Assembly: GCF_027359575.1 (NCBI RefSeq) | Contig: NZ_CP114784.1 | Coordinates: 496,001-560,000 of the forward strand | Direction of reading: 5' to 3' | Source of the DNA: Prochlorococcus marinus str. MIT 0917 | GTDB taxonomy: Bacteria > Cyanobacteriota > Cyanobacteriia > PCC-6307 > Cyanobiaceae | DNA length: 64,000 bases | Part shown: one piece after another, positions 36,985 to 59,746 of the stretch | How positions within the stretch are numbered: the first letter of the stretch is position 1 | Layout of the letters: every line of letters begins with the position of its first letter | The notes under the pieces: model-generated | Seen by the model: only the letters and a program-made list of their open reading frames with translations | Told to the model about the DNA's origin: nothing | Database searches by the model: none | Position numbers and translations under genes: made by a program

Positions 36985-37136
36985 ATGGGATATTTGGCTT
37001 TAACTGGGGAAATGGCTGAGATGTTCGGCTGGAAAAAAATAAATAACAGATATAGAAATTACTGCTGGAGTTGAAAAAAGATTGCCGGAATTTATGAAGT
37101 GAGTCCTACTACTGCCAGGCGTTGGTCTATTGATTA
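36985..37136 (+). pseudogene. HTH-domain relic, copy 1
   Basis: INNRYRNYCWS, TGA stop, KKIAGIYEVSPTTARRWSID. The intact 44.7-kb gene has INRYRSYSWSWKKITDIY. About 140 bases match the relic at 48.3-48.5 kb, including the same TGA at the second Trp. Confidence 0.65.
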
Positions 37137-37232
37137 GTAACAAGCGTAAAGATCAAACAGAATCCCACCAATAAACTCACCTAGTCCGAACCATGATTTC
37201 TTCTTTGGTTGTGCTGGAGTAGATGTGGTCAT
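37134..37232 (-). CDS. Small peptide (32 aa)
   Basis: MTTSTPAQPKKKSWFGLGEF then IGGILFDLYACY. Its ATG overlaps the upstream stop (TAATG). Last gene of a three-gene unit. Amphipathic, possibly membrane-associated through the second half. Confidence 0.55.
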   Translation of the reverse strand: MTTSTPAQPKKKSWFGLGEFIGGILFDLYACY

Positions 37233-37339
37233 TACATACATTGGCGAAGTCTATTAACAAGGATTGTTGAAAAGCCAATAAACAACCCAGCGGGTATAGC
37301 CAAGCTTGCAATAATTGTTACTTCGTTGATTCCGTACAT
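37232..37339 (-). CDS. Single-helix membrane peptide (35 aa)
   Basis: MYGINEVTIIASLAIPAGLF then IGFSTILVNRLRQCM. Start lies five bases after the upstream stop. A longer frame upstream exists but overlaps the conserved 43-aa gene, so this shorter start is preferred. Confidence 0.6.
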   Translation of the reverse strand: MYGINEVTIIASLAIPAGLFIGFSTILVNRLRQCM

Positions 37340-37344
37340 AATTT

Positions 37345-37476
37345 TTAAGCGTTGGCGTTGGCTTTGCTTAGTCGTAGTTTTAAATAAAAATTGTTTAGTG
37401 GCTCTTTTATGGAAAGCATTTTTCCATAGAACTCTTCGCAATGTTGGATTAACGGCTTGAAAGGATTCATGTCCAT
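37345..37476 (-). CDS. MDMNPFKPLIQH family protein (43 aa)
   Basis: MDMNPFKPLIQHCEEFYGKM, then LSIKEPLNNFYLKLRLSKAN. The paralog at 16.5 kb differs at about a third of positions but keeps the same frame, confirming both. Directly upstream is the last few codons (SVIV, stop) of a truncated NLPALLLLAG gene. Confidence 0.7.
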   Translation of the reverse strand: MDMNPFKPLIQHCEEFYGKMLSIKEPLNNFYLKLRLSKANANA

Positions 37477-37500
37477 TTTTTTTAGTCCTAAACGATTACT

Positions 37501-37528
37501 GAAAAAGAAACCCCCGCGTTGGAGGGTT
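37501..37528 (-). terminator. Terminator of the repeat B transcript
   Basis: On the minus strand AACCC and GGGTT pair across TCCAACGCGG, followed by TCTTTTTC. It ends the unit that starts at the promoter at 37.7 kb. Confidence 0.6.
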
Positions 37529-37542
37529 AACTAATGGTTTTG

Positions 37543-37850
37543 ATTACAAAAAAAGTGCAGACCTAGTGAACTTTTAATGAAATAGCGAAGGGAGGACTGG
37601 GATTTCGACGACCGTCCCCCGATCTAGCTTGATGATGCTTCCGTATCACGCCATCAATATGGGACTAATTTAAAAAGGATTTATTGAGTCCTGATGTTCG
37701 GTTTAGGTAGGGCTATCCAATCTTTTCTTGTTTTCTAACTTGATTTCGCCTATATATATAATTGAGGCCAAGCCTCATCAAGACATAATTGACTTTATAT
37801 AGTACGAGTCGATTAATAACCCCTTTAGTTATTGGAATTTCTAAGGGGGT
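37543..37850 (-). repeat. About 300-bp repeat, copy B
   Basis: Inverted counterpart of 34727-35032. On this strand it reads ACTAAAGGGGTTATTAATCG, then the GAAC-box promoter, then GGCGTGATACGGAAGCATCA. The lower half reads as KLDRGTVVEIPVLPSLFH after an early stop, which may be the trace of a small gene. Confidence 0.75.
37667..37717 (-). promoter_or_regulatory. Conserved GAAC-box promoter, copy 7
   Basis: Minus-strand AGCCCTACCTAAACCGAAC, 23 nt, TAAATT. It is inside repeat copy B and points toward the terminator at 37.5 kb, about 160 nt away. Confidence 0.65.
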
Positions 37851-37881
37851 TTCTTGTTTTAACCTGTTTTTACTTTATCCA

Positions 37882-37904
37882 TAAAAATGGGGGCCAATGC
37901 CCCC
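37882..37904 (-). terminator. Terminator with TTGACAGTCGATTTA module
   Basis: Minus strand GGGGGC ATTG GCCCCC then ATTTTTAT. Immediately upstream is TTGACAGTCGATTTA. It terminates the 50-aa gene. Confidence 0.75.
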
Positions 37905-37923
37905 AAGTAAATCGACTGTCAAC

Positions 37924-38076
37924 CTAGTAAGTGTTTAAGTCGAATTTTGATTCAGTAGTTTTAACTGGAATTGTATTATTTGCTAAAGAATCATCTCCTG
38001 AGGACGCTTGAAAAATAACTCCAGCTCCACCTATCAATAAAACTGCGAACATGATTGCGTGATATGCAGTAAACAT
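37924..38076 (-). CDS. Membrane peptide with polar tail (50 aa)
   Basis: MFTAYHAIMFAVLLIGGAGV, helix to IFQASSG, then a polar tail (TIPVKTTESKFDLNTY). ATG is clear. The gene ends 9 bases before the shared 3' module. Confidence 0.6.
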   Translation of the reverse strand: MFTAYHAIMFAVLLIGGAGVIFQASSGDDSLANNTIPVKTTESKFDLNTY

Positions 38077-38154
38077 TTTCTAAAAACTAAACTTTTAAAA
38101 ATCTAATCAGTTGAGATATAGCAGTGATGTAGTAGAAAGCGAATGTTTCTGGGG

Positions 38155-38195
38155 TGTTTCTGCTACTACTGCTAGGAGGTGGTCAATGGCTTGAA
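38155..38195 (+). pseudogene. HTH-domain relic, short fragment
   Basis: GVSATTARRWSMA, stop: the recognition-helix end of the HTH family at 37.1, 44.7 and 48.4 kb. Only 13 codons remain. Confidence 0.4.
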
Positions 38196-38197
38196 AA

Positions 38198-38329
38198 TTA
38201 GAGTTTCACCAAGTAGGAAATAAACCAAGCGGCAAAAATAATTTTTCCCAAAATGAGATATGGAACAAACTTAAAAGCCTTCTTTTCGAATGCTGCTTTG
38301 TCAAATGCTGGTTTATCAGTCGAAAGCAT
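38198..38329 (-). CDS. Single-helix peptide, cassette copy 1 (43 aa)
   Basis: MLSTDKPAFDKAAFEKKAFK then FVPYLILGKIIFAAWFISYL. Third gene of the cassette. The second copy at 45.2 kb starts MTSTDK, so MLS here is a small divergence. The gene overlaps the upstream one by 14 bases in another frame. Function unknown. Confidence 0.7.
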   Translation of the reverse strand: MLSTDKPAFDKAAFEKKAFKFVPYLILGKIIFAAWFISYLVKL

Positions 38330-38450
38330 GAGAAAGAAGCAACTGAATTTCTAGCGGGGTTAAATCACTATTTTCTATTCCCCAAAGCTCACCTTTGTTT
38401 GAGGCTTCAAGGATAGATTCGTAAAACTCAGGTGAGAATTTTGAAAGCAT
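38316..38450 (-). CDS. Small soluble protein, cassette copy 1 (44 aa)
   Basis: MLSKFSPEFYESILEASNKG, then ELWGIENSDLTPLEIQLLL. Acidic, helical. Second gene of the cassette, 8 bases after the membrane peptide. Nearly identical copy at 45.3 kb. Function unknown. Confidence 0.75.
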   Translation of the reverse strand: MLSKFSPEFYESILEASNKGELWGIENSDLTPLEIQLLLSHAFD

Positions 38451-38458
38451 TGTTCTAA

Positions 38459-38569
38459 TTAAACGATTACGAAAGAAGCAACATCAAATGAACCTGATGC
38501 AAGTAAAAGCGCAGGGATACAAAAAAGAGCTAGGAACTTAGCTGCTGAAGAATTATTGATTGAAGTCAT
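38459..38569 (-). CDS. NLPALLLLAG-family peptide, cassette copy 1 (36 aa)
   Basis: MTSINNSSAAKFLALFCIPA, then LLLASGSFDVASFVIV. Protein identical to the copy at 45.5 kb. First gene of the cassette, preceded by the GAAC-box promoter. One membrane helix. Confidence 0.8.
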   Translation of the reverse strand: MTSINNSSAAKFLALFCIPALLLASGSFDVASFVIV

Positions 38570-38634
38570 GGCAGGGAGAGGGTTAAAAATTTTCGGTGAT
38601 ACAGGGGTTGAACATTCCATTCACCGATGCGACA

Positions 38635-38689
38635 AATATAAAAAGTAATCTTGAAGTAATGATGTTCGGTTGGGGTAGTGCTTCCCTAC
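38635..38689 (-). promoter_or_regulatory. Conserved GAAC-box promoter, copy 3
   Basis: Minus strand GCACTACCCCAACCGAAC, 23 nt, TATATT, about 65 nt from the first cassette ATG. The nearby divergent CDLC gene starts 53 bases on the other side of the box. Confidence 0.7.
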
Positions 38690-38741
38690 TTCCATCCAAT
38701 AAAAAGAAGGATTAGACCGAAGGTGTAAGAAAGGAGGCTTT

Positions 38742-38831
38742 ATGAAACTCTTCACTCCCTTCACCATACCCAAAAAAGACAACTGCGATCTTTGCAGGAT
38801 TAAAAGGAATAATCAGAAGAGGGGCAAATAG
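38742..38831 (+). CDS. CDLC micropeptide, cassette copy 1 (29 aa)
   Basis: MKLFTPFTIPKKDNCDLCRI followed by a basic end. Strong ribosome site AAGGAGG eight bases upstream. The second copy at 45.7 kb is 50 aa and has the same NCDLCRI. The CxxC could bind metal with a partner or form a redox pair. Divergent from the membrane-peptide cassette. Confidence 0.65.
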   Translation: MKLFTPFTIPKKDNCDLCRIKRNNQKRGK

Positions 38832-38844
38832 CCTCTCTTTTTTT
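38818..38844 (+). terminator. Intrinsic terminator
   Basis: AGAGG and CCTCT pair around a nine-base loop, then seven T. It overlaps the stop codon of the CDLC micropeptide. Confidence 0.7.
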
Positions 38845-38924
38845 GCTGCTGCAAAAATGTATCCGAGGATGCGGCACATTGAAAATGCGTGCGACACAAA
38901 TAAATCAAGAGTTACCTCTCCACA

Positions 38925-39017
38925 ATGACAAAAGAACTTAAGGTTTCTTCGTCCTTGCTAACGGTTGGAGTGAGTGTACTTCTTTCGCTGGGACAGCCAG
39001 ATTCTTCAACTATTTAA
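38925..39017 (+). CDS. Possible membrane micropeptide (30 aa)
   Basis: MTKELKVSSSLLTVGVSVLL then SLGQPDSSTI. One short hydrophobic run. Its end overlaps the antisense 43-aa gene by eight bases. No paralog. Confidence 0.4.
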   Translation: MTKELKVSSSLLTVGVSVLLSLGQPDSSTI

Positions 39018-39141
39018 ATTCCTTTACAGGGATAGATTTGATTTCGTTTTCGACCATTAGTTTCCACATAGCTGAATTACTAGCCAAGAAGAAAACTCCA
39101 ATAGCAGCAATAAAAGGGAATAGATTTTTAAATTGCTTCAT
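39010..39141 (-). CDS. Single-helix peptide, FPFIAAIG family (43 aa)
   Basis: MKQFKNLFPFIAAIGVFFLA, then NSAMWKLMVENEIKS. Paralog of the 30-aa peptide at 13.6 kb. It starts two bases after the stop of the 99-aa FLKVxPGD gene, so the two are co-transcribed. Confidence 0.65.
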   Translation of the reverse strand: MKQFKNLFPFIAAIGVFFLASNSAMWKLMVENEIKSIPVKEFK

Positions 39142-39143
39142 TT

Positions 39144-39443
39144 CTACTGTTGTTGCTGCTGAATTTGCTCGTAGAAAGTGGAAGGCTTTTTGATTGTTGT
39201 TCGATATTCGCTAACGATGTCAGTAACTTCTTCACCATGAATCCAACGGATTTCGCCAGAATCTACGTTGGCAATTTGAAAGAGTGAGGGTGCATCAGGA
39301 TCACGAGAGCCGCCGACAAAAGTAAGAACTTTTCCGATTTGGTCCTTTTCATATAGAACAGCGTCCCCAGGTCTGACTTTTAAAAATAAAGGTTCATCCA
39401 TAAGTTCATTCTGTCCAAATCCATCAAGCAAGGGAAGTATCAT
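39144..39443 (-). CDS. FLKVxPGD-family protein, only intact copy (99 aa)
   Basis: MILPLLDGFGQNELMDEPLF, LKVRPGDAVLYEKDQIGKVL, FVGGSRDPDAPSLFQIANVD, SGEIRWIHGEEVTDIVSEYR and a Gln tail. Short beta strands with PGDxV and GEI suggest an SH3-like barrel, by inspection only. Broken copies exist at 18.1, 34.4 and 35.6 kb. Function unknown. Confidence 0.75.
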   Translation of the reverse strand: MILPLLDGFGQNELMDEPLFLKVRPGDAVLYEKDQIGKVLTFVGGSRDPDAPSLFQIANVDSGEIRWIHGEEVTDIVSEYRTTIKKPSTFYEQIQQQQQ

Positions 39444-39698
39444 TTTAGACCAAATTTCTAAGTCTGTTAAGTCAAGTAGTTTCAGAAAGTATTTGCCTAA
39501 GAAATTAAGCTATCACTAGCGAGTAAAGACTCAGTAGATCCCGCTGAGATCCCAGTCTCACTTTCTCATTAAAAAACCGAGTTCATAATTAAAGAATTAT
39601 TAGAAGTTTTGCGAATATTGTGCAATCAAAAGCTTTTGGGTAGTGGTTGATCTAGGTTGAGATTTACAAAGTAAGTATCTTTTTCTCCATCAATTGTT

Positions 39699-40253
39699 AT
39701 GCCAGCAAGGCGCAAGCGACTGACTAAACCTGAAGTTGTTGCATTGATAAGTGACTTAACTTCACAAGGAGATATTTCAGAAGAATTGTTATATGGGTTT
39801 GCAGAGAAAATTAATGGTGGACCTTTTACTACTCCTAAATCTAAGAAGCCGAAAACAATGACAATGGCAGCAGCAAGGAAGGCCGTCTTAGCTCAATTTA
39901 ATTGTACAACGGTTCCTCAATTACGAAAAAATAAAACTTTCAGTATGGCGATGACAGGAGAAAAAATTTCATTCAAGTCAAAAGATGACTGGATGAAACT
40001 TTATAGAAAATGGGTTGGCGTACCTACAGAGGAGAGAAGTAAGGAAGGTGCAACTTGTATTAATGGAATCGATGTTCTAGAAAATTTTCGTCCATGGCAT
40101 GTCTTTGGATTAGATAGCTCAACAGCAACAAAAGAAGATGTAAAAAAAGCATATAACTCTCTTGCAATGGTTCATCACCCAGATCATGGCGGAGATGAAA
40201 GAGTCATGGAACGGCTAACAAAAATGAAAGATTCAATTTTAGGGTTGATGTGA
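39699..40253 (+). CDS. J-domain protein of a two-gene module (184 aa)
   Basis: N-terminal basic region (MPARRKRLTKPEVVALISDL), a middle helical part (MTMAAARKAVLAQFNCTTVP), and a C-terminal J-domain: HVFGLDSSTATKEDVKKAYN, SLAMVHHPDHGGDERVMERL, with HPD at residues 160-162. J-domains recruit Hsp70; here the domain is at the C terminus, unlike DnaJ. The stop overlaps the next ATG (TGATG), so both proteins are made together. Island location suggests a defence or phage-related role, unproven. Confidence 0.8.
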   Translation: MPARRKRLTKPEVVALISDLTSQGDISEELLYGFAEKINGGPFTTPKSKKPKTMTMAAARKAVLAQFNCTTVPQLRKNKTFSMAMTGEKISFKSKDDWMKLYRKWVGVPTEERSKEGATCINGIDVLENFRPWHVFGLDSSTATKEDVKKAYNSLAMVHHPDHGGDERVMERLTKMKDSILGLM

Positions 40254-41326
40254 TGACTGATAAGATTTCAAAAAAACTCGGTCCAGCGTTATTAAGTCAT
40301 CATGAAGTGGCGAAAATTCTCAACAAAACTACTACGCAATTAACAAATACAATTAATTTTTTTGATGCTCATGATGATGACGAATGGGAATTACAAGAAG
40401 GAGAACATTTTGAGTTTCTAATTAAGAGTGGTCCGATTCATCTTCGCCCACGACGATTTACTGAAGAAGCTGTTGCTATTTTGGCCCGTTATTATGAAGA
40501 AAAAGGTGAAATAAACTTTGTAAATCGTGTTTTAGATGCCTTGTTAAGAAGGCGCCTTAAAAGAAAGAAAATGCTTGTCTCAAGAAAAATTGTGAAGCAG
40601 TTTGTTTCGTCTGAAGTACCTCTAGAAATAAGAGGAGAGTTCGCATTCGTTACCAAGAAAACTACTATAAATATTCTTGAGACAAATGGAAAAGGGTTTA
40701 ACAATAGCGAACAACGTTTAATTAATTCTGGTTCATTAGATGGTCAAGAAGGGCTTGAAATTGATAAAGATTTTATTCGTTCAGAAGAAACAGAAGAAAG
40801 GATGTGGAGTCAAAGAGGCATTGCTCGGCTTGCAATTGATATGTCTCAAAATTCAAGGATAAAAAAATCTCGTAAAGTTTGGGTAGAGACAGTTGGTGAT
40901 GTCGTAGAGGATTGTTTTAAGCAAGAGATCAAAAGATTGAATGCAGCTTCAAATAGAATTGACAAGATAATTAGTAATGCAAAAAAAGCCACGAATTACA
41001 CATGCCAAGTAAGTGGGAAGAAAAAAAACAATGTTAATTCTGTGCAATTAATAGGACACCATCTGTTTGATAGACATACACGCCCAGACCTTGCTGATCT
41101 TCAAGAAAATATCTTAGTTGTCGAAAATCAAATACATATACAATTTCATGCATGGAAAGGTGGAGAAAGTTGTGAGCCAAAAGATTTTTTAAAGTTTCTA
41201 TTGGACGTAAGATTTGATTTAATAGATCCAGACAATTCAGTAGCCTCAAAGAAAAGGTATCAACACCTTTTGACTTGGTTGGAGAAATTACAGAAAAACT
41301 ATGAAAAAAGTTATCTAAAAAATTGA
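40253..41326 (+). CDS. HNH-like protein of a two-gene module (357 aa)
   Basis: Start is the ATG in TGATG; a GTG one codon earlier is possible. The N terminus has a helix-turn-helix-like stretch (HHEVAKILNKTTTQLTNTIN) and a second possible DNA-binding region (LVSRKIVKQFV). The C-terminal part holds YTCQVSGKKK, LIGHHLFDRHTRPD, ENILVV and IHIQFHAWKGG, which fits an HNH nuclease core (His-His, Asn, His) with only one of the usual Cys. I do not recognise the family as a whole. It probably acts on DNA. Confidence 0.65.
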   Translation: MTDKISKKLGPALLSHHEVAKILNKTTTQLTNTINFFDAHDDDEWELQEGEHFEFLIKSGPIHLRPRRFTEEAVAILARYYEEKGEINFVNRVLDALLRRRLKRKKMLVSRKIVKQFVSSEVPLEIRGEFAFVTKKTTINILETNGKGFNNSEQRLINSGSLDGQEGLEIDKDFIRSEETEERMWSQRGIARLAIDMSQNSRIKKSRKVWVETVGDVVEDCFKQEIKRLNAASNRIDKIISNAKKATNYTCQVSGKKKNNVNSVQLIGHHLFDRHTRPDLADLQENILVVENQIHIQFHAWKGGESCEPKDFLKFLLDVRFDLIDPDNSVASKKRYQHLLTWLEKLQKNYEKSYLKN

Positions 41327-41345
41327 TTTAAAGACAATCTTATTT

Positions 41346-41489
41346 TTAAAAAGCTTCGGGAGGTTTTTTTGATACACGAACTACTTTAACTCCTAAATTT
41401 TTTTCCATATCTTTTAGGACTTCTTCATCCGTTCTTTTGTCTTCAGGATCAACTGAATAGGGAACATTTATATCTGTGAAACGGCTCAT
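41346..41489 (-). CDS. Small soluble protein (47 aa)
   Basis: MSRFTDINVPYSVDPEDKRT, DEEVLKDMEKNLGVKVVRVS. Charged, mixed fold. Its ATG overlaps the stop of the zinc-ribbon gene by four bases. Last gene of the nine-gene unit that runs down from 42.9 kb. Confidence 0.65.
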   Translation of the reverse strand: MSRFTDINVPYSVDPEDKRTDEEVLKDMEKNLGVKVVRVSKKPPEAF

Positions 41490-41752
41490 AGTTCAAACCT
41501 CTCATATCTATATCTCATCTTTGGGGTATCTTTCCAAATAGCAGCATCACAATTATTGCATCCCCAAGTTCGAGGCCAAGGAAGATCTGGAATACATCCA
41601 ACGCAATGAATATTTGGATTCTGGAAATCTTCCTGCGAGGGATAACCATAAATTGATTTTCTTACTGCTTTCTCACCACAACTAGGGCAGATAATTGGCT
41701 TCCTATCAGACCAATATCGGTTCTCTTCATTAGGGATCTTTGTTGTTTTCAT
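41486..41752 (-). CDS. Zinc-ribbon protein (88 aa)
   Basis: Start MKTTKIPNEENRYWSDRKPI. Cys pairs CPSCG, CVGC and CNNC (six Cys plus one His before CVGC) make one or two zinc ribbons; W/P-rich linker between them (DLPWPRTWG). Could bind nucleic acid or protein. Only four bases separate it from the upstream membrane gene. Confidence 0.7.
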   Translation of the reverse strand: MKTTKIPNEENRYWSDRKPIICPSCGEKAVRKSIYGYPSQEDFQNPNIHCVGCIPDLPWPRTWGCNNCDAAIWKDTPKMRYRYERFEL

Positions 41753-41756
41753 GCAA

Positions 41757-41945
41757 CTACTTTTTGCCCTTTCTCTTCTCACGCGCAAGTGCATCATTTT
41801 CAAGCGTTGTATTTATCAAACCTTGATAGTCTCCACCTGCTGAGGCAAGACCAAACATCACAACAAAACCTAGACCAGCAAAAATCGTCACAATCCAAGT
41901 ACCTGTTCCCATATTGAGTGGTATTGCAAATAAAGGACTAGGCAT
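41757..41945 (-). CDS. MPSPLFAIPLNMG family membrane protein (62 aa)
   Basis: Paralog of the 36.6-kb gene: same start, helix (WIVTIFAGLGFVVMFGLASA) and tail (GLINTTLENDALAREKRKGK). Part of the nine-gene unit. Confidence 0.75.
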   Translation of the reverse strand: MPSPLFAIPLNMGTGTWIVTIFAGLGFVVMFGLASAGGDYQGLINTTLENDALAREKRKGKK

Positions 41946-41991
41946 TCGAAAATCAATTACTAATAAAATCACCCTAATGAGTTTTGGATGT

Positions 41992-42216
41992 TTAACGGTT
42001 CCTTCTGTAAATAAAGAAATAAACAATCCAAAAGACAGCTAAGTAAATAAAGAAAACTGCTATTGGGTTTACCCCTGCCACCGATGCGAATTTCAGCCCT
42101 AAAGGTAGTGAGGCAAAAATCAAACCATATCCAAGCATGTGATTAAAAACTTCCCAGCTTCGGAAGTACCAAGACAGGGCAAATCCAATGAGAACTAAAA
42201 CTGCGAATATTGGCAT
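41992..42216 (-). CDS. Two- or three-helix membrane protein (74 aa)
   Basis: Hydrophobic throughout: MPIFAVLVLIGFALSWYFRS, MLGYGLIFASLPLGLKFASV, PIAVFFIYLAVFWIVYFFIY, basic tail. It begins directly after the stop of the exported protein. No paralog. Confidence 0.65.
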   Translation of the reverse strand: MPIFAVLVLIGFALSWYFRSWEVFNHMLGYGLIFASLPLGLKFASVAGVNPIAVFFIYLAVFWIVYFFIYRRNR

Positions 42217-42435
42217 CTATCTTTTTTCCTTTTTCATATCGTAATTAAATTTGGTAGAAACTTTGTTGCCTTGCCAAGAAAGAGTGCCTTGATACATGTC
42301 CTCACCTTGTAAATATCTAATTGCTTCATCCGACATTGGATCAGGTGAAGGTGCATCAGATATTTGTTCTGCTTGAACTGCAAAAGGACAGAAAAACAAA
42401 AGCAGACCAAGAACAAAAGCAAATAGTTTTTTTAT
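42217..42435 (-). CDS. Exported protein with apparent AUA start (72 aa)
   Basis: Aligned with the intact paralog at 35.9 kb (MTKIFTFVLGLLLFF), this gene reads IKKLFAFVLGLLLFFCPFAV: the initiator is ATA, directly behind the TAG of the previous gene. No ATG, GTG or TTG restores a signal peptide; the first TTG would remove most of it. Mature part EQISDAPSPDP, GEDMYQGTLSWQGNKVST. Either AUA is used or the gene is silenced. Confidence 0.55.
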   Translation of the reverse strand: MKKLFAFVLGLLLFFCPFAVQAEQISDAPSPDPMSDEAIRYLQGEDMYQGTLSWQGNKVSTKFNYDMKKEKR

Positions 42436-42552
42436 CTAATCCAACCTATCTGCATAATCTCTGAGAATTTCTGCAATAACATTTGGTGGGATTTCTTCTT
42501 GAGCGTCCTTGCAAAGATCAAAGAACTTATCCATGAACTCTTTCCTGGTCAT
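42436..42552 (-). CDS. Small acidic protein (38 aa)
   Basis: MTRKEFMDKFFDLCKDAQEE, IPPNVIAEILRDYADRLD. Helical, one Cys. The stop touches the next frame with no gap, and the start overlaps the upstream gene by 26 bases. Confidence 0.6.
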   Translation of the reverse strand: MTRKEFMDKFFDLCKDAQEEIPPNVIAEILRDYADRLD

Positions 42553-42625
42553 GTTCCTGAATGAGCCAAATTTTCTCTATTAAAGGATCAAACTCTCTTT
42601 TGTAGCTCTCGGCACTAATACTCAA
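42527..42625 (-). CDS. Small protein, TTG start (32 aa)
   Basis: Read from TTG as MSISAESYKREFDPLIEKIW then LIQEHDQERVHG. Composition is protein-like and no stop breaks it, but the start is weak and the overlap with the next gene long. Confidence 0.4.
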   Translation of the reverse strand: MSISAESYKREFDPLIEKIWLIQEHDQERVHG

Positions 42626-42637
42626 ATTTCATTGCAG

Positions 42638-42745
42638 CTACCAATCTGGATATTCTCCTTCAACTGGTTCTTCATAGAAATCTCCCTTTTTTATACCAGC
42701 AAAATATTCAGTTAAAAATTCTTCCTGGTTGGCTTGGTCTTCCAA
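42638..42745 (-). CDS. Small acidic protein ending EYPDW (35 aa)
   Basis: TTG start one base after the upstream TAA: MEDQANQEEFLTEYFAGIKK, then GDFYEEPVEGEYPDW. The decayed copy at 32.7 kb keeps the same sequence with a frameshift, evidence that it once was a gene. Acidic, soluble. Confidence 0.6.
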   Translation of the reverse strand: MEDQANQEEFLTEYFAGIKKGDFYEEPVEGEYPDW

Positions 42746-42746
42746 C

Positions 42747-42896
42747 TTAAGCGTCAGTTTCTTTTACTTGCTCAGTTTTTGTTTCTTGGCTTTTTTTGTC
42801 TTTTGAATAAGAGCAACCGCCTTCACCCCAACCCCAAGCAAGAGATGGGCCAGCAATAACTGAAAGAGCAAAAACAAATGAAATAACCTTTTTCAC
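42747..42896 (-). CDS. Exported small protein (49 aa)
   Basis: GTG start; signal peptide MKKVISFVFALSVIAGPSLA with cleavage after SLA. Mature 29 residues start WGWGEGGCSYSKDKKS: one Cys and a Lys/Thr/Gln-rich tail. First gene of a nine-gene chain. Broken copy at 32.5 kb. Confidence 0.7.
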   Translation of the reverse strand: MKKVISFVFALSVIAGPSLAWGWGEGGCSYSKDKKSQETKTEQVKETDA

Positions 42897-42946
42897 TTTG
42901 AACTTAAAAGTAGGTTCCATATCTTAAGAGCATTTTCATTGGTCCG

Positions 42947-43084
42947 TTAAATCCCTTTAATTCCTTTTTTAAGAAGACCACTATCAAGATCTTGAATAAC
43001 ATAAACATATCCAGAGCTGTCTGACTCAGAATCTTGCGACCAAGGATCATTTGAATCATGCCATACAGGATCTTTTACATTCAT
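42947..43084 (-). CDS. Small acidic protein (45 aa)
   Basis: Start at internal ATG: MNVKDPVWHDSNDPWSQDSE, SDSSGYVYVIQDLDSGLLKK. The longer frame upstream overlaps the secreted 134-aa gene and is less likely. Acidic/Trp-rich, soluble. Confidence 0.45.
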   Translation of the reverse strand: MNVKDPVWHDSNDPWSQDSESDSSGYVYVIQDLDSGLLKKGIKGI

Positions 43085-43128
43085 CAGAAATGTCTCCCAT
43101 AAGTTGCGAGAAAGAAAAGGCGCTTCAT

Positions 43129-43533
43129 CTAATTCCACCCGAAGCAATACTTTTCCCTTCTTTCTATTCTCTCCTCTTCTGTTCCTTCTGTCCCAACACA
43201 AGTCTTAAAGGCTTTGAGTATTAGTGAGTTCTTTTCTTCTACATCGAGTTTTCGATAGCTGCATACACTAGTGGTACTTGGAAAGTATTTGTATTTTTCG
43301 TCGGAGGCTTCTGGAAATAAATAAGTTATCGGCCATGAGTATTGATCTTCTCCATCTCCCTCTAATTTCAGTCCTCTACCAGACTTAGAAATTTCTACAA
43401 GGTGCTTAGGCTTGCCATCTTTACAACGAACTTCTATCCCATCCTGATAAGAGGGGTAGTAATAGATTCCAGCATTAACAGGTACAGTAATTCCAAATAT
43501 TAACGGTGCAAGTAGTAGGCATTTCATTCTCAT
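43129..43533 (-). CDS. Secreted protein (134 aa)
   Basis: Signal peptide MRMKCLLLAPLIFGITVPVNA. Mature part has four Cys (EVRCKDG, SVCSYRK, KTCVGTE, KYCFGW) compatible with two disulfides, and a strand-rich middle (KHLVEISKSGRGLKLEGDGE). It lies 8 bases downstream of the Gly-rich secreted protein pair. Family not recognised. Confidence 0.7.
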   Translation of the reverse strand: MRMKCLLLAPLIFGITVPVNAGIYYYPSYQDGIEVRCKDGKPKHLVEISKSGRGLKLEGDGEDQYSWPITYLFPEASDEKYKYFPSTTSVCSYRKLDVEEKNSLILKAFKTCVGTEGTEEERIERREKYCFGWN

Positions 43534-43541
43534 ACAGATAG

Positions 43542-44045
43542 CTATCCAGAAGATTTAACTTGTCCCATTTGCAAACCAGTGAATTTAATTAATTCTTTTT
43601 GATGCTTTTTTGCTGTTCTCTTATTTAAAAATCTAAAACTTTGAACGTAATTTGAACCATCATCTTTTTGCCCCATCACAGTAAAAAAGACATTTTTCCC
43701 TTTACCTAATCTTGATCCTAATTTCGCTCCACCTAAGATTCCACCAACCGCTACTACGGGGCATAATACTCCTCCTGACATTACGCATGCAACAGTACCC
43801 ATATATCCAGCTGTACTTACAGCAGCACCTCCAGCAACACCCAAAGCCAGGTTGTATTCATCTCCGCCTGTATACCATTGAATAATGTTATCTTTGTCGA
43901 TAAAGCCCTGAGGACCTTCTAACCCAGACTCATTAATAGTTATTTGACAATCCTTGTTATTGCAGAGTGCATCATAGGTGTCTGCAATCACGGCGGTAGG
44001 TGACAAAAGTCCAGCAGTCAGGGCAACAAATAAAAGGCGGCGCAT
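43542..44045 (-). CDS. Gly-rich secreted/membrane protein, tandem copy 2 (167 aa)
   Basis: Signal peptide MRRLLFVALTAGLLSPTAVI, then TYDALCNNKDCQITINESGL, a glycine-zipper-like hydrophobic centre (LALGVAGGAAVSTAGYMGTV, VGGILGGAKLGSRLG) and a basic C terminus (VMGQKDDGSNYVQSF... KKHQKELIKFTG). The zipper suggests membrane insertion or oligomer formation. About 560 bp, including the upstream bases, are tandemly duplicated. Confidence 0.75.
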   Translation of the reverse strand: MRRLLFVALTAGLLSPTAVIADTYDALCNNKDCQITINESGLEGPQGFIDKDNIIQWYTGGDEYNLALGVAGGAAVSTAGYMGTVACVMSGGVLCPVVAVGGILGGAKLGSRLGKGKNVFFTVMGQKDDGSNYVQSFRFLNKRTAKKHQKELIKFTGLQMGQVKSSG

Positions 44046-49969: not shown

Positions 49970-50671
49970 ATGAATAAATATTTTGATCAGCCAATTGTTA
50001 TACTTGGTGGTTTCTTGATTGACGGTAGTGCCTATAAGGAAATGACAGAATATATTAAAAGTAGAATAAAGAACAAAGTAGTAATAGTTCCAGTAAATAA
50101 AATTGAGTGGCTTAGTACTAATTGGTCATTTGGTTGGAAGAATATTCTTGATAAAGTTGAGAAAATAGTGACAGAATTATCGAAAGAATCGTCTACGAAT
50201 AAAGTCACTTTGATAGGTCATAGCTCTGGAGGGATGATCCTCAGATTGTATTTATCAGATCTTTTATTTAGTCGGAAGATCTACAATGGGAAGGATTATG
50301 CAAATTGCTTAATTACACTAGGAAGTCCTAATCAAGCAAAAAGAGCCACCTATCTACGTAATTTTGTAAGCTCTAAATTGCCAGGTAGTTTCTATAGCGC
50401 AGATGTTAGTTATATATCTGTTGCTGGCGAATTAGACTTGAACGGACCTATTGCGACAAAGACATCACTAAAATTAAGCAAGTCATCTTATAGAGCATTG
50501 AATGGAAATGGAGATGTTATTGGAGATGGACTAGTCCCTAGAGATTCAGCATTACTAATTGGCTCAAAACAGGTAGTGATGAAAGAAACAGCACACGGAA
50601 AAGCTTTTGGTAAGGATTGGTATGGTTCAAAAAATAAAGTTGAAGAATGGCTTAATAAATCTTTGATATGA
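49970..50671 (+). CDS. Alpha/beta hydrolase, lipase-like (233 aa)
   Basis: N-terminal strand IVILGGFLIDGSAYKEM, nucleophile elbow LIGHSSGGM (Ser85 in GHSSG), a likely Asp in GDGLVPRDSALL and His in TAHGKAF complete the triad. Resembles triacylglycerol-lipase-like or PGAP1-like esterases of cyanobacteria. No signal peptide. It sits 159 bases before the iron cluster, same strand; whether it belongs to it (for example as an esterase on a siderophore) is open. Confidence 0.7.
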   Translation: MNKYFDQPIVILGGFLIDGSAYKEMTEYIKSRIKNKVVIVPVNKIEWLSTNWSFGWKNILDKVEKIVTELSKESSTNKVTLIGHSSGGMILRLYLSDLLFSRKIYNGKDYANCLITLGSPNQAKRATYLRNFVSSKLPGSFYSADVSYISVAGELDLNGPIATKTSLKLSKSSYRALNGNGDVIGDGLVPRDSALLIGSKQVVMKETAHGKAFGKDWYGSKNKVEEWLNKSLI

Positions 50672-50830
50672 TATAGAAGTAATTTAGAGGTTTGGATTTA
50701 ATTAGATTTTAATTTATTTTGTAGACTTCTTTCTGTAAAAGCCATCCAGCTTTAGTAATCACGTATGTAATATTTGTACATGGCATAAATATTAGAATAA
50801 CTATCGTTAAGTTGAAATAATTTCTTTCAG

Positions 50831-51850
50831 GTGTCCTATCAAAAGTTTTTAAACTTGTTTAGGGAAAAGAATAGATTGAACGCAACGGTTCTTTTAGTAT
50901 TTATTGCTTTAGTCATAGTTTTGTCTTTAAGTAATGGCTCTGTTGAATTAAGTAGTCATGAATTAATCAAAGCATTCATGAGAGAAGGTGATTTAACTAA
51001 TCAAATTATTTTTTGGGAACTTAGACTTCCTAGATTAATTGCTTCTTTACTTGTTGGCTCAGCATTAGGTATGTCTGGGGCTCTCCTGCAAGGAATGCTA
51101 AGAAATGGATTGGCAAGTCCTTACTTGCTCGGCATTTCTGCAGGGTCTGGCTTGGTAATTGTTTTGTTGATAAGCATGGGTTTATGGCTCTCTTGGATTC
51201 CGATTGCTGCATGGATAGGGGCAATTATCACTACGTTAATTGTCTATTGTTTAGCAAAATCTGGGACTTCCATATCAGTTGAAAGATTGATTCTTGCAGG
51301 GGTTGCTTTAAGTAGTCTTTTTGGGTCTATTCAGTCAATGCTTCTCCTACAAACAGAAGATGGAAGAGTTCAAGCTGCTTTGACTTGGTTAATAGGTAGT
51401 CTTAACTCCAGAGGTTGGACTGAAATCAAGTTAGCTGGTCCACCAATCATCTTTGCTTTAGTTGTGGGATTATTACTCTCAAGACAATTGAATTTATTAG
51501 GCTTGGGAGATGAATTATCTGTAGGTTTAGGAAATTCTTTATTTCGTTCAAGATGCTTGATTGGTGCATCTGCAACTCTGTTGGCTGCAAGCTCAGTTAG
51601 CGTTGGTGGCTTGATTGGATTTGTAGGTTTGATTGTCCCCCATGCCGTACGATTTTTATTTGGGACAGACTATAAAGTTGTTCTTCCATTCTCTGCTTTA
51701 TTAGGTGCCTTTACCCTTAGTTCGGCCGATTTGATTGCAAGATCGGGGTCTATTGAATTGCCTGTTGGAATCATCACATCATTATTAGGCGCTCCAATTT
51801 TTATAGTCTTATTGTATAAAAGACAAAAATCCTTAACTAGTATGAGATAG
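50831..51850 (+). CDS. FecCD-type iron-chelate permease
   Basis: 339 aa, GTG start. About nine to ten hydrophobic segments; the family blocks are LRLPRLIASLLVGSALGMSG, LLQGMLRNGLASPYLLGISA, and VGGLIGFVGLIVPHAVRFLF. As a single FecCD protein it would form a homodimer in the inner membrane with the ATPase encoded 5 bases downstream, importing a siderophore-, haem- or corrinoid-type ligand. Confidence 0.9.
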   Translation: MSYQKFLNLFREKNRLNATVLLVFIALVIVLSLSNGSVELSSHELIKAFMREGDLTNQIIFWELRLPRLIASLLVGSALGMSGALLQGMLRNGLASPYLLGISAGSGLVIVLLISMGLWLSWIPIAAWIGAIITTLIVYCLAKSGTSISVERLILAGVALSSLFGSIQSMLLLQTEDGRVQAALTWLIGSLNSRGWTEIKLAGPPIIFALVVGLLLSRQLNLLGLGDELSVGLGNSLFRSRCLIGASATLLAASSVSVGGLIGFVGLIVPHAVRFLFGTDYKVVLPFSALLGAFTLSSADLIARSGSIELPVGIITSLLGAPIFIVLLYKRQKSLTSMR

Positions 51851-51855
51851 ACGTA

Positions 51856-52632
51856 ATGACACTAATAACAAAAGATTTCTCTACCGGTTATGAAGAAAAT
51901 CAAATCATTAAATCGATAAGTCTCTCATTAGAGAAATCTGAGTGGTTAGGAATTGTTGGAGCGAATGGATCAGGTAAATCCACTTTCTTAAAAGGTATAA
52001 GCCGCATACTTGACGCACATACAGGTAATGCCTATTTGGATGGGCAGGATATTCATCATTCTTCTACTAAGGAAATAGCAAAAAAGATTTCTGTATTACC
52101 TCAGCATCAGAGGTCTAATTTAACTCTTACCGTCTATGAATTGGTATGTCTTGGACGGTCTCCTCATAAAAAATGGTGGGAACTCGACCTTGATGAAAAT
52201 GATCATATAAAAGTAGAGAGATCCATCGAATTAACTGATATGACAGTTTTTAAGGATAAACCTGTTGATAAATTATCTGGAGGGCAAAGGCAAAGGGCTT
52301 TCCTTTCTTTAGCTCTTGCGCAAGATGCAAAAACACTTTTATTGGATGAACCAACAACTTTTTTAGATCTTCGCTATCAACTTCAATTCTTAGACCTACT
52401 CAAGAAAATAAATCATGAACAGGAAATTTCAATTGTTACTGTTATTCATGACTTGAACTTGGCTGCGAGATACTGCGATCGGATTGCAGTACTTAAAGAC
52501 GGCGAATTATTAGCTATCGACAAACCAAGAGAAGTTCTAACTCATGAGCTTTTGAAAAATGCTTTTCAAGTTGAGACATGCCAAATAGAAACACCTATTG
52601 GTCTTCAAGTATGTACAATTAAATCTTGCTGA
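51856..52632 (+). CDS. FecE-type ABC transporter ATPase
   Basis: 258 aa. Walker A GANGSGKST (35-43), Q-loop LPQHQ, signature LSGGQRQ (140-146), Walker B LLLDEP (161-166), H-loop VIHDL (His198). YELVCLGRSPH is typical of iron-chelate ATPases. Operon with the permease. Confidence 0.92.
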   Translation: MTLITKDFSTGYEENQIIKSISLSLEKSEWLGIVGANGSGKSTFLKGISRILDAHTGNAYLDGQDIHHSSTKEIAKKISVLPQHQRSNLTLTVYELVCLGRSPHKKWWELDLDENDHIKVERSIELTDMTVFKDKPVDKLSGGQRQRAFLSLALAQDAKTLLLDEPTTFLDLRYQLQFLDLLKKINHEQEISIVTVIHDLNLAARYCDRIAVLKDGELLAIDKPREVLTHELLKNAFQVETCQIETPIGLQVCTIKSC

Positions 52633-52833
52633 AATGGCATAATCAATTTGTATATAGACATAGAAGTATAGCTTTATACCTGTAAGAGGATCTAATAGCA
52701 CCTTTTAGCCTATGGATTACCAGAAAGAATCTTTTTGCTTATTTATATGTATAGAACGATACCTTTTTGAAAAGTTTTTCAATAAATTTATGTCTATAAA
52801 AATAAGTATATTTTCTTGTTGTGTGAGGCAAGG

Positions 52834-55074: not shown

Positions 55075-55128
55075 ATTTTATATAGTAAGTATAAATTAAG
55101 TCAAGTTTTTAATTAAACAAAAAAGTTA

Positions 55129-56016
55129 ATGAAGATTCTAAATTATTTCTACTTTTTACCATTTTTGTTATTAAGTTCTTGTTCGTCATTTAATTCTAAT
55201 AATGGAGCAATAAGTGATAGTAATTCAAAGCTCTTACAAGATAAGAGTATTAATAAAGTAATTACTTTAACATCATTAAGTACTGATATTGTTAGTGCTT
55301 TATCAAGGGATAAACTTGTAGCTATTCCTGGAAGTTCACTTTTTAAAGGTAAAATTGACTATCAGAAATTGCCAAGAATAAGTCAGGGCAGAACTCCACC
55401 TAATTTAGAGAAAATTGTTTCTTTGAAGCCAGATTTGGTAATTGGGACAAAGGGTTTTCATGACAAAATACTAGGCAAACTTAAAGATATTAATATTCAA
55501 ACAATTTCGTATGAATTAAATGATTGGAATAGCCTAGAAAATACTATTAATTTAATTTCTACTAAATTAGATATAAATAATTTGAGGACATCTAATGAAA
55601 TAGTTAACACTAAATTGAAAGAATGTGTTGTTGCCAATGAACAAAATGAAAACCCTAGTGTAGTTGTTCTTGCTAGTACAAAACCTATTCTCTCTCCTAA
55701 CTCAAAAAGTTGGGCTGGAAATCTTCTTCAAAGATTTGGTATAAATAGTCTAACTAAAGATCTTGATTCAAAAAGTGAGTTTCGAGGTTACGTAAATTTA
55801 TCACCAGAATGGTTAATAAAAGAAGATCCTGATAACTTAATTATTATCCAAACAAGGCCTGGACAATACGTTGACTTTGAAAAATCTAAGCCATTTTCTA
55901 ATCTAAAAGCAGTTAAATCTGATCAAGTGTATCGTTTTAATTACTATGGGCTAATAAATGCAGGTAGTTTAGAGAGTATTAATAGTGCATGTTTAAAACT
56001 TAGAAAAATATTTTAA
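55129..56016 (+). CDS. Iron-chelate-binding lipoprotein
   Basis: 295 aa. Lipoprotein signal MKILNYFYFLPFLLLSSC (lipobox LSSC). Type III binding-protein plan: VITLTSLSTDIVSALSRDKL, NLEKIVSLKPDLVIG, a linking helix, and WAGNLLQRFGINSL ... EWLIKEDPDNLIII. It delivers the ligand to the FecCD permease. 54 bases after the receptor gene; converges with tonB with a four-base gap. Confidence 0.88.
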   Translation: MKILNYFYFLPFLLLSSCSSFNSNNGAISDSNSKLLQDKSINKVITLTSLSTDIVSALSRDKLVAIPGSSLFKGKIDYQKLPRISQGRTPPNLEKIVSLKPDLVIGTKGFHDKILGKLKDINIQTISYELNDWNSLENTINLISTKLDINNLRTSNEIVNTKLKECVVANEQNENPSVVVLASTKPILSPNSKSWAGNLLQRFGINSLTKDLDSKSEFRGYVNLSPEWLIKEDPDNLIIIQTRPGQYVDFEKSKPFSNLKAVKSDQVYRFNYYGLINAGSLESINSACLKLRKIF

Positions 56017-56020
56017 CTAC

Positions 56021-56707
56021 TTATTTTATTTTTAAATCGTATTCAATATTTATTGAAGTTTCCTCTTCTAAGGGGTAAAAAGTAGAATTAATTGCAGCTT
56101 TTTTAGCAGCTTTATCAATTGATTCATGCCCACTGTGACTTATTAACTCTGCCTTAAAGACTTTTCCCTTTTTGTTAATCCATACTTTTACTATAGGAGT
56201 TCCCTCTGCTCCTCTTCTAAGAGCGATTGGAGGGTATATAGGCCGAACACATTTCAAACAAGTAATTTTTATTGTTCCCTTGCCCATTAAAGATCCCTTT
56301 TCTGGCTCATTATTGTTTATACCTTCACTAGATCCGCTCCCTTTTTCCTCTTTTAATATAGTTTTGTTTACCGAATTACTTTTATTTAACTTCTGTTCAA
56401 TTTGATTCTCATTTATCTTTTTAGTTATTTTTTTATTTTCAAATGATTTTTCTTGATCTAAAGGATTTTTATTATTAATTTTTTCTTTTAATTCTTCTTT
56501 TGTTGAAGGTCTTTTAATTGATTTTTCACTTCTTTTTGTGGCTTCCCCTAATCCTGATTCTTGGAAATTATCAATCAGCTCAATTGGAATAATTTTCTTA
56601 CCTAAACTGATATCTTTTTCTTTTTCTACAAATAAAAAGAAGGAAAGGTGAATCAATACTGACAAGAGGATGTAATAATTGATTCTAATTGTTTTTATCT
56701 TATTCAT
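56021..56707 (-). CDS. tonB: TonB energy-transducing protein
   Basis: 228 aa: one N-terminal helix (YYILLSVLIHLSFFLFV), a long Lys/Glu/Asn-rich linker (residues 45-140) instead of the usual Pro-rich one, and a C-terminal TonB domain (RPIYPPIALRRGAEGTPIVK, VWINKKGKVFKAELISHSGH). It couples the proton gradient to the receptor. Divergent from exbB, with 74 bases between that should hold both promoters. Confidence 0.88.
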   Translation of the reverse strand: MNKIKTIRINYYILLSVLIHLSFFLFVEKEKDISLGKKIIPIELIDNFQESGLGEATKRSEKSIKRPSTKEELKEKINNKNPLDQEKSFENKKITKKINENQIEQKLNKSNSVNKTILKEEKGSGSSEGINNNEPEKGSLMGKGTIKITCLKCVRPIYPPIALRRGAEGTPIVKVWINKKGKVFKAELISHSGHESIDKAAKKAAINSTFYPLEEETSINIEYDLKIK

Positions 56708-56781
56708 TTTTCTAGGTAATTATTAATCCAATTAGCTTTCTTTTATTAGGATTATGATTGTTATATTCATTATAAGTCTTC

Positions 56782-57411: not shown

Positions 57412-57413
57412 TA

Positions 57414-59672: not shown

Positions 59673-59746
59673 TCGGGGCGACAGGATTCGAACCTGCGAC
59701 CTAGTGCTCCCAAAGCACCCGCGCTACCAAGCTGCGCCACGCCCCG
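59673..59746 (-). tRNA. tRNA-Pro (anticodon UGG)
   Basis: 74 nt: acceptor CGGGGCG/CGCCCCG, D-arm GGCGCAGCTTGGTAGCGC, anticodon arm GGGTGCTTTGGGAGCACT with TGG, T-loop GGTTCGAATCC, discriminator A, no encoded CCA. Next to an integrase relic, it is a candidate integration site. Confidence 0.95.

What the first reader, a model, noticed from the sequence alone, without database searches (positions are those of the whole stretch)
39699..41326. J-domain protein coupled to an HNH-like protein: candidate two-gene system
The C-terminal J-domain (HPD at 160-162) and the downstream 357-aa protein with HTH-like N-terminal segments and an HHxxN...H nuclease-like C terminus overlap by TGATG and are isolated from other genes on their strand. 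A J-domain with a private nuclease partner is not a standard housekeeping pair; the island setting and flanking direct repeats fit a defence, anti-phage or mobile-element function.
Basis: partly seen in the sequence, partly recalled or inferred. Interest (0 to 1): 0.8.

Follow-up and report, generated by a model that had tools for sequence, protein, structure and literature searches.

The report
Chaperone-linked nuclease pair, copied by phage
A two-gene unit in a marine cyanobacterium joins a dedicated co-chaperone (J-domain) protein to an HNH nuclease-like protein; the same pair recurs across cyanobacteria, and some phages carry a copy of only the co-chaperone half inside a probably injected protein, which suggests an unrecognised phage-bacterium arms race.

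Summary
The 184-aa protein ends in a J-domain (HPD). The 357-aa partner has two tandem copies of one domain plus an HNH-type C-terminus. Both are under purifying selection.

The pair is a patchy but strict operon in Cyanobacteriia: strong partner matches in 73 of 388 class genomes. All 79 have J directly upstream, as do 49 of 49 in a 300-genome sample of the window's family. No intact partner lacked J. HPD and the HNH residues persist at 20-25% identity. Four divergent HNH genes elsewhere also follow other J-domain genes.

Unexpectedly, the J-module without the nuclease is fused to an LPD1 'polyvalent' phage protein in 19 IMG/VR contigs. These copies nest inside the family's J clade. The module is optional cargo: 17 of 26 contigs with that backbone carry it, 9 lack it, two of them keeping a deletion scar.

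Best reading: an anti-phage, toxin-antitoxin-like module in which a J-protein/DnaK controls an HNH effector, with the phage J-module as counter-defence. Nothing was tested at the bench; no defence-island signal or flanking direct repeats were found. PADLOC has no specific model, and nine topical literature searches listed no description.

The parts
39699..40253 (+). J gene: 184-aa protein, family-specific N-terminal region plus C-terminal J-domain
   Evidence: Pfam DnaJ E 1e-5, 26 bits, just under the 27.8 cut-off
39699..40091 (+). Family-specific N-terminal region of the J protein (residues 1-131; in A4 R103, E112, G117, N122, G123 invariant). A profile of this part (A10) hits 8 of 31 genomes of one order, once each, whereas the whole-protein profile A2 hits 388 of 388 class genomes through the generic J-domain
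40092..40250 (+). J-domain (residues 132-184): helix II, HPD (160-162, nt 40176-40184), helix III; chain ends after helix III
40253..41326 (+). Partner gene: 357-aa HNH-type protein
40274..40528 (+). Partner protein, tandem domain copy 1 (residues 8-92); HTH/antirepressor-like by eye only (AntA/Bro-N resemblance recalled; 1 of 78 members matches Bro-N, E 0.002)
40565..40867 (+). Partner protein, tandem domain copy 2 (residues 105-205); HHalign copy 1 vs copy 2 probability 93.6, E 2e-7; each copy against residues 206-320: probability under 1
40958..41212 (+). HNH-type domain (residues 236-320): C251, H269, H270, N286, H295, H299, C307
39576..41372 (.). Block that travels as a unit in related Prochlorococcus (95% identical, in other surroundings, in G007 / AG-402-B05 and in AG-432-D11)
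59673..59746 (-). tRNA-Pro(TGG) in the window; a partial copy of it sits just after the border homologous to 39576 in G002 and G001

Best explanation
A two-gene conflict (most likely anti-phage) module. The partner protein is an effector: two tandem N-terminal recognition domains and a C-terminal HNH nuclease. The J protein is its dedicated co-chaperone: the family-specific N-terminal half recognises the effector (or its trigger), and the HPD J-domain brings in the host's DnaK, which keeps the effector restrained or recycles it in the healthy cell. Infection upsets this control and frees the nuclease, as in a toxin-antitoxin defence module with the J protein in the antitoxin seat. Phages of picocyanobacteria have captured the J-module and carry it as optional cargo in an LPD1 polyvalent protein, probably delivered with the DNA, where it would re-impose control on the nuclease. 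SHOWN: the pairing, the co-inheritance, the conserved HPD and HNH residues, purifying selection, the phage fusion, its nesting in the host clade, its presence/absence. INFERRED: nuclease activity, J-partner binding, DnaK involvement, phage host, injection, defence and counter-defence, and the direction of control.
For: Pairing: 79 of 79 strong partner matches (73 of 388 genomes) and 49 of 49 full-length ones (47 of 300 family genomes) have J just upstream on the same strand; 119 distinct after removing 9 shared (by hand). J and partner distances correlate, r 0.80, n 76. Residues: H160-P161-D162 invariant in 79 of 79 J; C251, H269, H270, N286, H299, C307 invariant and H295 at least 90% in 78 partners. 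HNH: PHROG 144/119/8048 match 47/44/34 of 78 at E <= 0.01, best 2e-9. J-HNH pairing recurs outside the family: in 4 of 9 loci of weak HNH matches that I fetched (G225, G237, G259; G255) another HPD-bearing J ORF abuts or overlaps the HNH ORF on the same strand. Asymmetry: no intact partner without J, whereas J is open with the partner absent or broken in G127, G327, G163 (IS-split), G232:C26 and G566 (apparently frameshifted). Phage: J-module in 19 IMG/VR contigs, 6 distinct sequences, HPD kept, in an LPD1 protein between a portal and a Mu F-like protein; nested in the J clade of the window's family, 100/99, sister to J of G309, G316, G375 and kin, 95/92; present in 17 of 26 backbones, scar in two. 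Precedents: DnaJ with working J-domain residues is needed for bNACHT25 nuclease immunity (PMC12169576); T4 injected proteins block GmrSD restriction enzymes (PMC12373910).
Against: No activity, toxicity or interaction tested. No enrichment of PADLOC families beside the pair against genes 5.5 kb or more away. The asymmetry rests on few broken loci (5 vs 0; the J-domain of G566 was not inspected), and decay of a useless partner would also give it. The window's own partner matches HNH profiles only weakly. The 18 virus records tested are fragments, so absence of the partner is weak. Phage J proteins are elsewhere predicted to recruit host HSP70 for folding and assembly (PMC7824862). One member (L139) has Ser at H295. 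The partner's fold could not be modelled, and no PDB HNH was found by profile. Two further HNH-region matches (G327, G146) had no J ORF next to them; the first is short and truncated at its start, the second a different zinc-ribbon HNH protein.
Confidence: 0.5

Rival explanations
1. Same defence module, opposite polarity: the J protein with DnaK is the sensor/activator (it licenses the nuclease when phage proteins load the chaperone system), and the phage J-module is a decoy or dominant negative that soaks up the partner.
For: bNACHT25, a PD-(D/E)XK DNase immune protein, needs DnaJ with working H33 and D35 to respond to phage (PMC12169576, abstract and passages). Obligate pairing fits equally well. 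The phage copy keeps the family-specific half.
Against: J without an intact partner (5 loci) and phage J-modules with intact HPD fit an antitoxin slightly better; a pure decoy would not need HPD.
Confidence: 0.22
2. The pair does a non-immune job (stress-linked DNA processing or repair), and the phage J-module is a general chaperone recruiter that helps fold or process its large virion protein.
For: Homologues sit beside ordinary chromosomal genes; no defence-island signal; DnaJ proteins in jumbo phages are predicted to aid folding (PMC7824862, passages).
Against: Patchy: 73 of 388 class genomes and full-length in 2 of 37 same-genus genomes, window included (a third, G630). The phage copy is not a generic J-domain but the family-specific module, nested in the host family, and is absent from 9 of 26 related backbones, so it is not needed for folding in those.
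Confidence: 0.17
3. A selfish or addictive gene pair (homing-like HNH or plasmid-style addiction) kept by its own transfer or toxicity, with no benefit against phage.
For: Travels as a compact block; contexts differ between genera; PHROG HNH relatives are phage HNH endonucleases.
Against: No recombinase in the two-gene block; no match in 72,556 plasmid records by tblastn with the L073 pair; does not explain phage capture of J alone.
Confidence: 0.08

Closest known systems
bNACHT25 / DnaJ (E. coli NLR-related nuclease immunity, PMC12169576)
   Same: A nuclease effector whose anti-phage action depends on a J-domain with functional HPD-region residues
   Different: There the J protein is the general host DnaJ and the effector is a PD-(D/E)XK-NACHT protein; here the J protein is dedicated, small, and operon-linked to an HNH protein in which no NTPase domain was matched
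Type II toxin-antitoxin modules
   Same: Two overlapping or abutting genes, small gene first, obligate pairing, patchy, apparent antitoxin capture by phage
   Different: The would-be antitoxin is a J-domain co-chaperone; toxicity and neutralisation untested
Polyvalent proteins (Iyer et al. 2017, PMC5512222)
   Same: The phage carrier has LPD1 (PF18796), an HEWGHALD zincin-like motif (by eye), and lies between portal and Mu F-like genes
   Different: A J-domain is not mentioned in that paper's main text (0 hits for 'DnaJ' and 'J domain')
GmrSD type IV restriction vs T4 internal proteins (PMC12373910)
   Same: Injected phage proteins counter a defence nuclease with an HNH domain
   Different: In the passages seen the T4 proteins are not described as homologues of a host subunit; here the phage module is a homologue of the host partner protein
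HSP70/DnaJ-containing GAP1-N2 conflict systems (PMC7159879)
   Same: A DnaJ domain used inside a predicted conflict system
   Different: GTPase-centred, mostly actinobacteria and firmicutes; no J-HNH pair in the passage seen

Membership tests
J-domain proteins (Pfam DnaJ) | HPD tripeptide between helices II and III | tested here: met
   H160-P161-D162 invariant in 79 of 79; helices 145-159 and 167-183 around it in the model, block pLDDT 69-87 from residue 131 on
J-domain proteins (Pfam DnaJ) | Profile or fold match to J-domains | tested here: met
   A4 profile hits PDB J-domains over positions ~130-186, best 7.7e-8; Foldseek top hits are J-domains, probability up to 1.00, though none at E <= 0.001; Pfam 26.0 vs cut-off 27.8 for the window member
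DnaJ (type I/II Hsp40) | N-terminal J-domain followed by G/F, zinc and CTD domains | tested here: not met
   J-domain is at the C-terminus and the protein ends after it
HNH / His-Me finger nucleases | Conserved His, Asn, His of the motif in sequence | tested here: met
   H269-H270, N286, H299 invariant, H295 at least 90% in 78 members; PHROG HNH families up to 47 of 78 at E <= 0.01, best 2e-9; window member itself only 0.014
HNH / His-Me finger nucleases | beta-beta-alpha-metal fold | tested here: inconclusive
   AlphaFold model useless, pLDDT 34.7 with a 4-row alignment; no PDB HNH by profile
HNH / His-Me finger nucleases | Nucleic-acid cleavage | not testable with these tools
   needs purified protein
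Toxin-antitoxin module | Obligate two-gene operon | tested here: met
   79 of 79 and 49 of 49; of 80 measured gaps 56 are at most 10 nt, 16 of these 0 or less
Toxin-antitoxin module | Toxin never intact without antitoxin; orphan antitoxins occur | tested here: met
   0 intact orphan partners; orphan J in G127, G327; partner broken with J open in G163, G232:C26, G566; small numbers
Toxin-antitoxin module | Toxicity and neutralisation | not testable with these tools
   needs expression
Known PADLOC defence system | Match to a system-specific model | tested here: not met
   0 families for either window protein at E <= 1; 33 of 78 partners match one type II REase model at E <= 0.1, best 5.8e-8, over the HNH region or wider
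Anti-phage defence system | Enrichment in defence islands | tested here: inconclusive
   Near neighbours (150 of 151 picked) vs far (127): both mostly single hits, none enriched in the 25 families shown
Phage polyvalent protein (carrier of the J-module) | LPD domain, several unrelated domains, virion-gene context | tested here: met
   LPD1 E 3e-12 plus DnaJ E 2.4e-6 in L175:3748-6519, between Phage_portal_3 and Phage_Mu_F
Phage polyvalent protein (carrier of the J-module) | Packaged and injected with DNA | not testable with these tools
   inferred from context

The most novel reading that the evidence does not exclude
A previously undescribed immune module, widespread in cyanobacteria, in which an Hsp70 co-chaperone is the dedicated on/off switch of an HNH nuclease, built in several versions with different recognition regions, and matched by phages that inject a captured copy of the switch as an optional part of a polyvalent protein: a chaperone-based antitoxin and its viral mimic.
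Probability: 0.4. Interest if true: 0.9.

Novelty: new variant of a known kind. Interest (0 to 1): 0.78.

Why it matters
If true, it makes Hsp70 recruitment a built-in control of a nuclease immune effector rather than a borrowed host function. It gives cyanobacteria, Prochlorococcus and its kin among them, a common but unlisted defence. It also offers a ready-made genetic test: related phages that differ by presence or absence of one ~150-residue module, against hosts that differ by one two-gene block. And it adds a domain to the known repertoire of phage polyvalent proteins.

Tried and rejected
Flanking direct repeats as mobility marks: none bracket the pair. Defence-island test by PADLOC on near vs far neighbours: no difference visible. 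A conserved third gene: none seen; recurring neighbours reflect genus-level synteny. Partner structure: not interpretable. PDB profile search for an HNH structure: 10 unrelated hits, best E 0.0026 to an interferon, and none with the HNH part alone. Pfam Herpes_ori_bp hit of the window partner (E 0.005, below cut-off) and NCBIfam hits: judged chance. Plasmid and phage collections with the L073 pair: no match; plasmids with the two divergent HNH proteins: no match. Viral-contig scans with the partner: none (short patterns, low sensitivity). A count of the second J-HNH kind: 4 of 319 class genomes, the same four it was built from. Housekeeping: rejected as main reading because of patchiness. Promoter/terminator scan: no more than chance. 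Spread outside Cyanobacteriia: the phylum search (15 of 146 genomes matched, all window or same-class) does not tell how many other-class genomes it held, so no claim is made.

Rows dropped before counts: A3 holds 78 of 83 partner rows (left out L137, L142, L151, L157, L158); A4 79 of 84 J rows (left out L134, L152, L155, L156, L158); the 89-row tree leaves out L155, L156 and uses only the last 200 residues of L134; the correlation uses 76 loci.

Full report
WHAT IS THERE. The window is part of a complete 1.92-Mb genome; the nearest named relatives of the pair are Prochlorococcus single-cell genomes AG-363-A03, AG-402-B05 and AG-432-D11. Protein 1 (184 aa) ends in a J-domain; protein 2 (357 aa) overlaps it by one base. 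The other 11 of 13 ORFs of 60 aa or more in 37.5-43.5 kb are on the other strand. Among the window and three close relatives dN/dS is 0.11-0.34 for J and 0.06-0.20 for the partner over 6 pairs each, so both proteins are maintained.

THE PAIR IS A CONSERVED TWO-GENE UNIT. A first search found the partner in 8 of 60 genomes, window and one fragment included; the five distant ones (L003, L005-L008) each have a J gene directly upstream. Profiles were then run on 388 class genomes of at least 90% completeness. The partner profile A1 matches 87 genomes at E <= 0.001; 79 matches in 73 genomes are strong (E < 1e-60), and all 79 have a strong J match directly upstream on the same strand. At least two of the 79 are incomplete (G163, split by insertion sequences; G180, split between two contigs). 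The J profile A2 hits all 388 genomes through its generic J-domain, but only 85 places in 78 genomes are strong (E < 1e-25). In 300 genomes of the window's family, 49 full-length partners (840 nt or more matched) in 47 genomes all have J upstream. Nine loci are shared between the samples, so 119 distinct partners were seen, all paired (sum by hand). Of 80 measured gaps 56 are at most 10 nt and 16 of these are 0 or less, with starts chosen by a simple rule. J and partner distances correlate, r 0.80, n 76, 0 of 2000 permutations; part of this is shared ancestry.

EXCEPTIONS. J without a strong partner in the class sample: G127 and G327 (J intact, no partner of this family beside it), G223 (J altered near a contig end), G364 (J truncated; neighbours read by eye as dnaK and dnaJ), G232:C26 (partner apparently frameshifted) and G270 (partner matched in two pieces but one 395-aa ORF). 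Family sample: G513 and G500 (partner incomplete; G513 is at a contig end), G566 (partner broken into two matches with a stop), G612:C7 and G467 (short J pieces). Partner pieces of this family without J exist; those seen are fragments, carry stops or, for G294, lie at a contig end. No intact partner without J was seen. This resembles toxin-antitoxin asymmetry, but only 5 loci show J with a missing or broken partner.

OTHER J-HNH PAIRS. On rechecking, I fetched 9 loci of weak partner matches. In four of them the HNH ORF is a different protein, and directly upstream, abutting or overlapping on the same strand, lies another J-domain ORF with HPD near its C-terminus: G225, G237 and G259 (one related set, HNH ORFs of 219-255 aa) and G255 (HNH ORF 354 aa). 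None of these J ORFs matches the family-specific profile A10 at E <= 0.01. G327 has a short HNH ORF of the first set, truncated at its start and without J; G146 has a zinc-ribbon HNH protein without J; the other three loci (G294, G106, G401) are pieces of the window's family. The first set is rare: 4 of 319 class genomes, the four used to build the profile. So a J-domain gene feeding into an HNH gene recurs with different recognition regions, which points to a real functional link between the two domains. About ten further weak HNH-region matches were not examined.

ANATOMY. In 79 J proteins (A4) H160, P161, D162, R103, E112, G117, N122 and G123 are invariant. The N-terminal region is family-specific: profile A10 hits 8 of 31 genomes of one order, once each. 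The J model has mean pLDDT 64, 69-87 by block from residue 131 on, and Foldseek ranks J-domains first, none at E <= 0.001. In 78 partners (A3) C251, H269, H270, N286, H299 and C307 are invariant and H295 at least 90% (L139 has Ser). PHROG HNH endonuclease families match 47, 44 and 34 of 78 at E <= 0.01 (best 2e-9), Pfam HNH_2 5 of 78 at E <= 0.01 (best 3e-5), and a PADLOC type II restriction model 33 of 78 at E <= 0.1 (best 5.8e-8). The window's own partner is a weak case (PHROG HNH 0.014 and 0.036). The N-terminal half is an internal duplication: residues 8-92 against 105-205, HHalign probability 93.6, E 2e-7, while each against 206-320 gives probability under 1. Its resemblance to antirepressor-type DNA-binding domains is my reading by eye. 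The partner could not be modelled.

LOCATION. In Prochlorococcus the pair is a compact block (39576-41372) found in other surroundings in relatives; DNA matches in G001, G002, G007 and G033 stop exactly at 39576, and in G002 and G001 a partial tRNA-Pro follows that border, while the window's own tRNA-Pro lies at 59673-59746. This is a variable island. Elsewhere the pair sits in ordinary chromosomal contexts, with no visible excess of PADLOC families near it (150 near genes; 127 far genes; only the top 25 families of each are displayed).

PHAGES CARRY THE J HALF. A scan of IMG/VR with the J alignment gave 18 contigs and a second scan one more: 19 contigs, 6 distinct module sequences (7 in the tree, two of them identical when trimmed alike), all with HPD, 43-47% identical to the window J. 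In each the module lies near the C-terminal end of a 928-941-aa open frame. In L175 this protein has LPD1 and DnaJ matches and lies between a Phage_portal_3 portal (top-ranked relative Synechococcus phage S-CBS4, 35%) and a Phage_Mu_F protein. In a tree of 89 J sequences the phage modules fall inside the clade of the window's family (13 rows, 100/99); in a focused tree of 39 they are sister to J proteins of G309, G316, G375 and kin (17 rows, 95/92). They have a long stem (1.1-1.4), so their exact place is less sure than their membership. That the phages infect picocyanobacteria is inferred from this and from the portal. A scan with the phage backbone found 26 contigs: 17 have the J-module and 9 do not; two of the 19 J contigs (L178, L180) were not among the 26. 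Five J-less backbones compared are 71-85% identical to four J-bearing ones, and two contigs with the same protein end (L267, L268) keep a short remnant of the module's C-terminus. The module is thus gained or lost as cargo. No partner gene was found in the 18 virus records tested or by pattern scan; both are weak negatives.

MECHANISM. The shared element between host and phage is the J-module, not the nuclease. Together with obligate pairing this suggests that the module acts on the partner (or on what triggers it) and that phages profit from bringing their own. The intact HPD in host and phage copies suggests that DnaK recruitment is part of the act. I favour restraint of the nuclease (antitoxin-like) over activation, with about two to one odds. 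bNACHT25 (PMC12169576; abstract and passages) shows that J-domain function can be needed for nuclease immunity; there DnaJ is required for activation, which is the rival polarity. PMC12373910 (passages) shows injected phage proteins disabling GmrSD restriction enzymes, which carry an HNH nuclease domain. PMC5512222 (passages) describes polyvalent proteins and has no hit for 'DnaJ' or 'J domain' in its main text. PMC7824862 (passages) predicts a folding role for jumbo-phage DnaJ. PMC12619734 and PMC7159879 (passages) discuss DnaJ in phages and in conflict systems. PMC3710099 and PMC5490813 (passages) did not bear on the pair.

NOVELTY. Ten full-text searches were made, nine of them topical (one search was on the islands). 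I saw their listings and passages of the eight papers named; none described a J-HNH pair. Many subscription papers and all bioRxiv preprints are outside that library. PADLOC 2.0.0 has no match to either window protein. I rate it a new variant of a known kind (two-gene nuclease conflict modules), with the chaperone control and the phage J-mimic as the new features. The immune function remains an inference.

Noticed in passing
window 49970-57818: A TonB-dependent metal/siderophore-type uptake cluster: FecCD permease, ABC ATPase, TonB-dependent receptor, periplasmic binding protein, ExbB and ExbD (Pfam).
   Followed up: partly
window 58851-59636 (-): Stand-alone 261-aa NAD-dependent DNA ligase adenylation domain (PF01653, 1.9e-25) right beside tRNA-Pro; it was the only Pfam match in that ORF.
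   Followed up: no
L277:842-2582, L278:2122-3296, L279:629-1913, L280:990-2274: Divergent J-HNH gene pairs (G255, G225, G237, G259) with other N-terminal regions: a wider J-HNH class.
   Followed up: partly
window 37000-39576 and 41350-44000: Small minus-strand ORF blocks recur in shuffled order and orientation in same-genus genomes and at further places in this genome, as if single-gene cassettes are being reshuffled.
   Followed up: partly
L205:3044-3061, L206:2320-2337: Partial tRNA-Pro copies directly after the border homologous to window 39576 in genomes that lack the pair there: likely remnants of an integration site.
   Followed up: partly
L175:3748-6519 and L175:6494-10210: Phage proteins with repeated 'TGYxCGxxCIxxxKxCR' segments, one ahead of the J-module; meaning unknown.
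   Followed up: no
L137:9103-12802: Partner gene in G163 split within the HNH region by inserted transposase-like ORFs while J is intact.
   Followed up: yes
L156:6693-10389: A J remnant of this family that has lost its J-domain lies next to ORFs that look like dnaK and dnaJ in G364 (by eye).
   Followed up: no
L139:3039-4064 (-): Partner homologue with Ser in place of H295, a possible loss of catalysis in one member.
   Followed up: no
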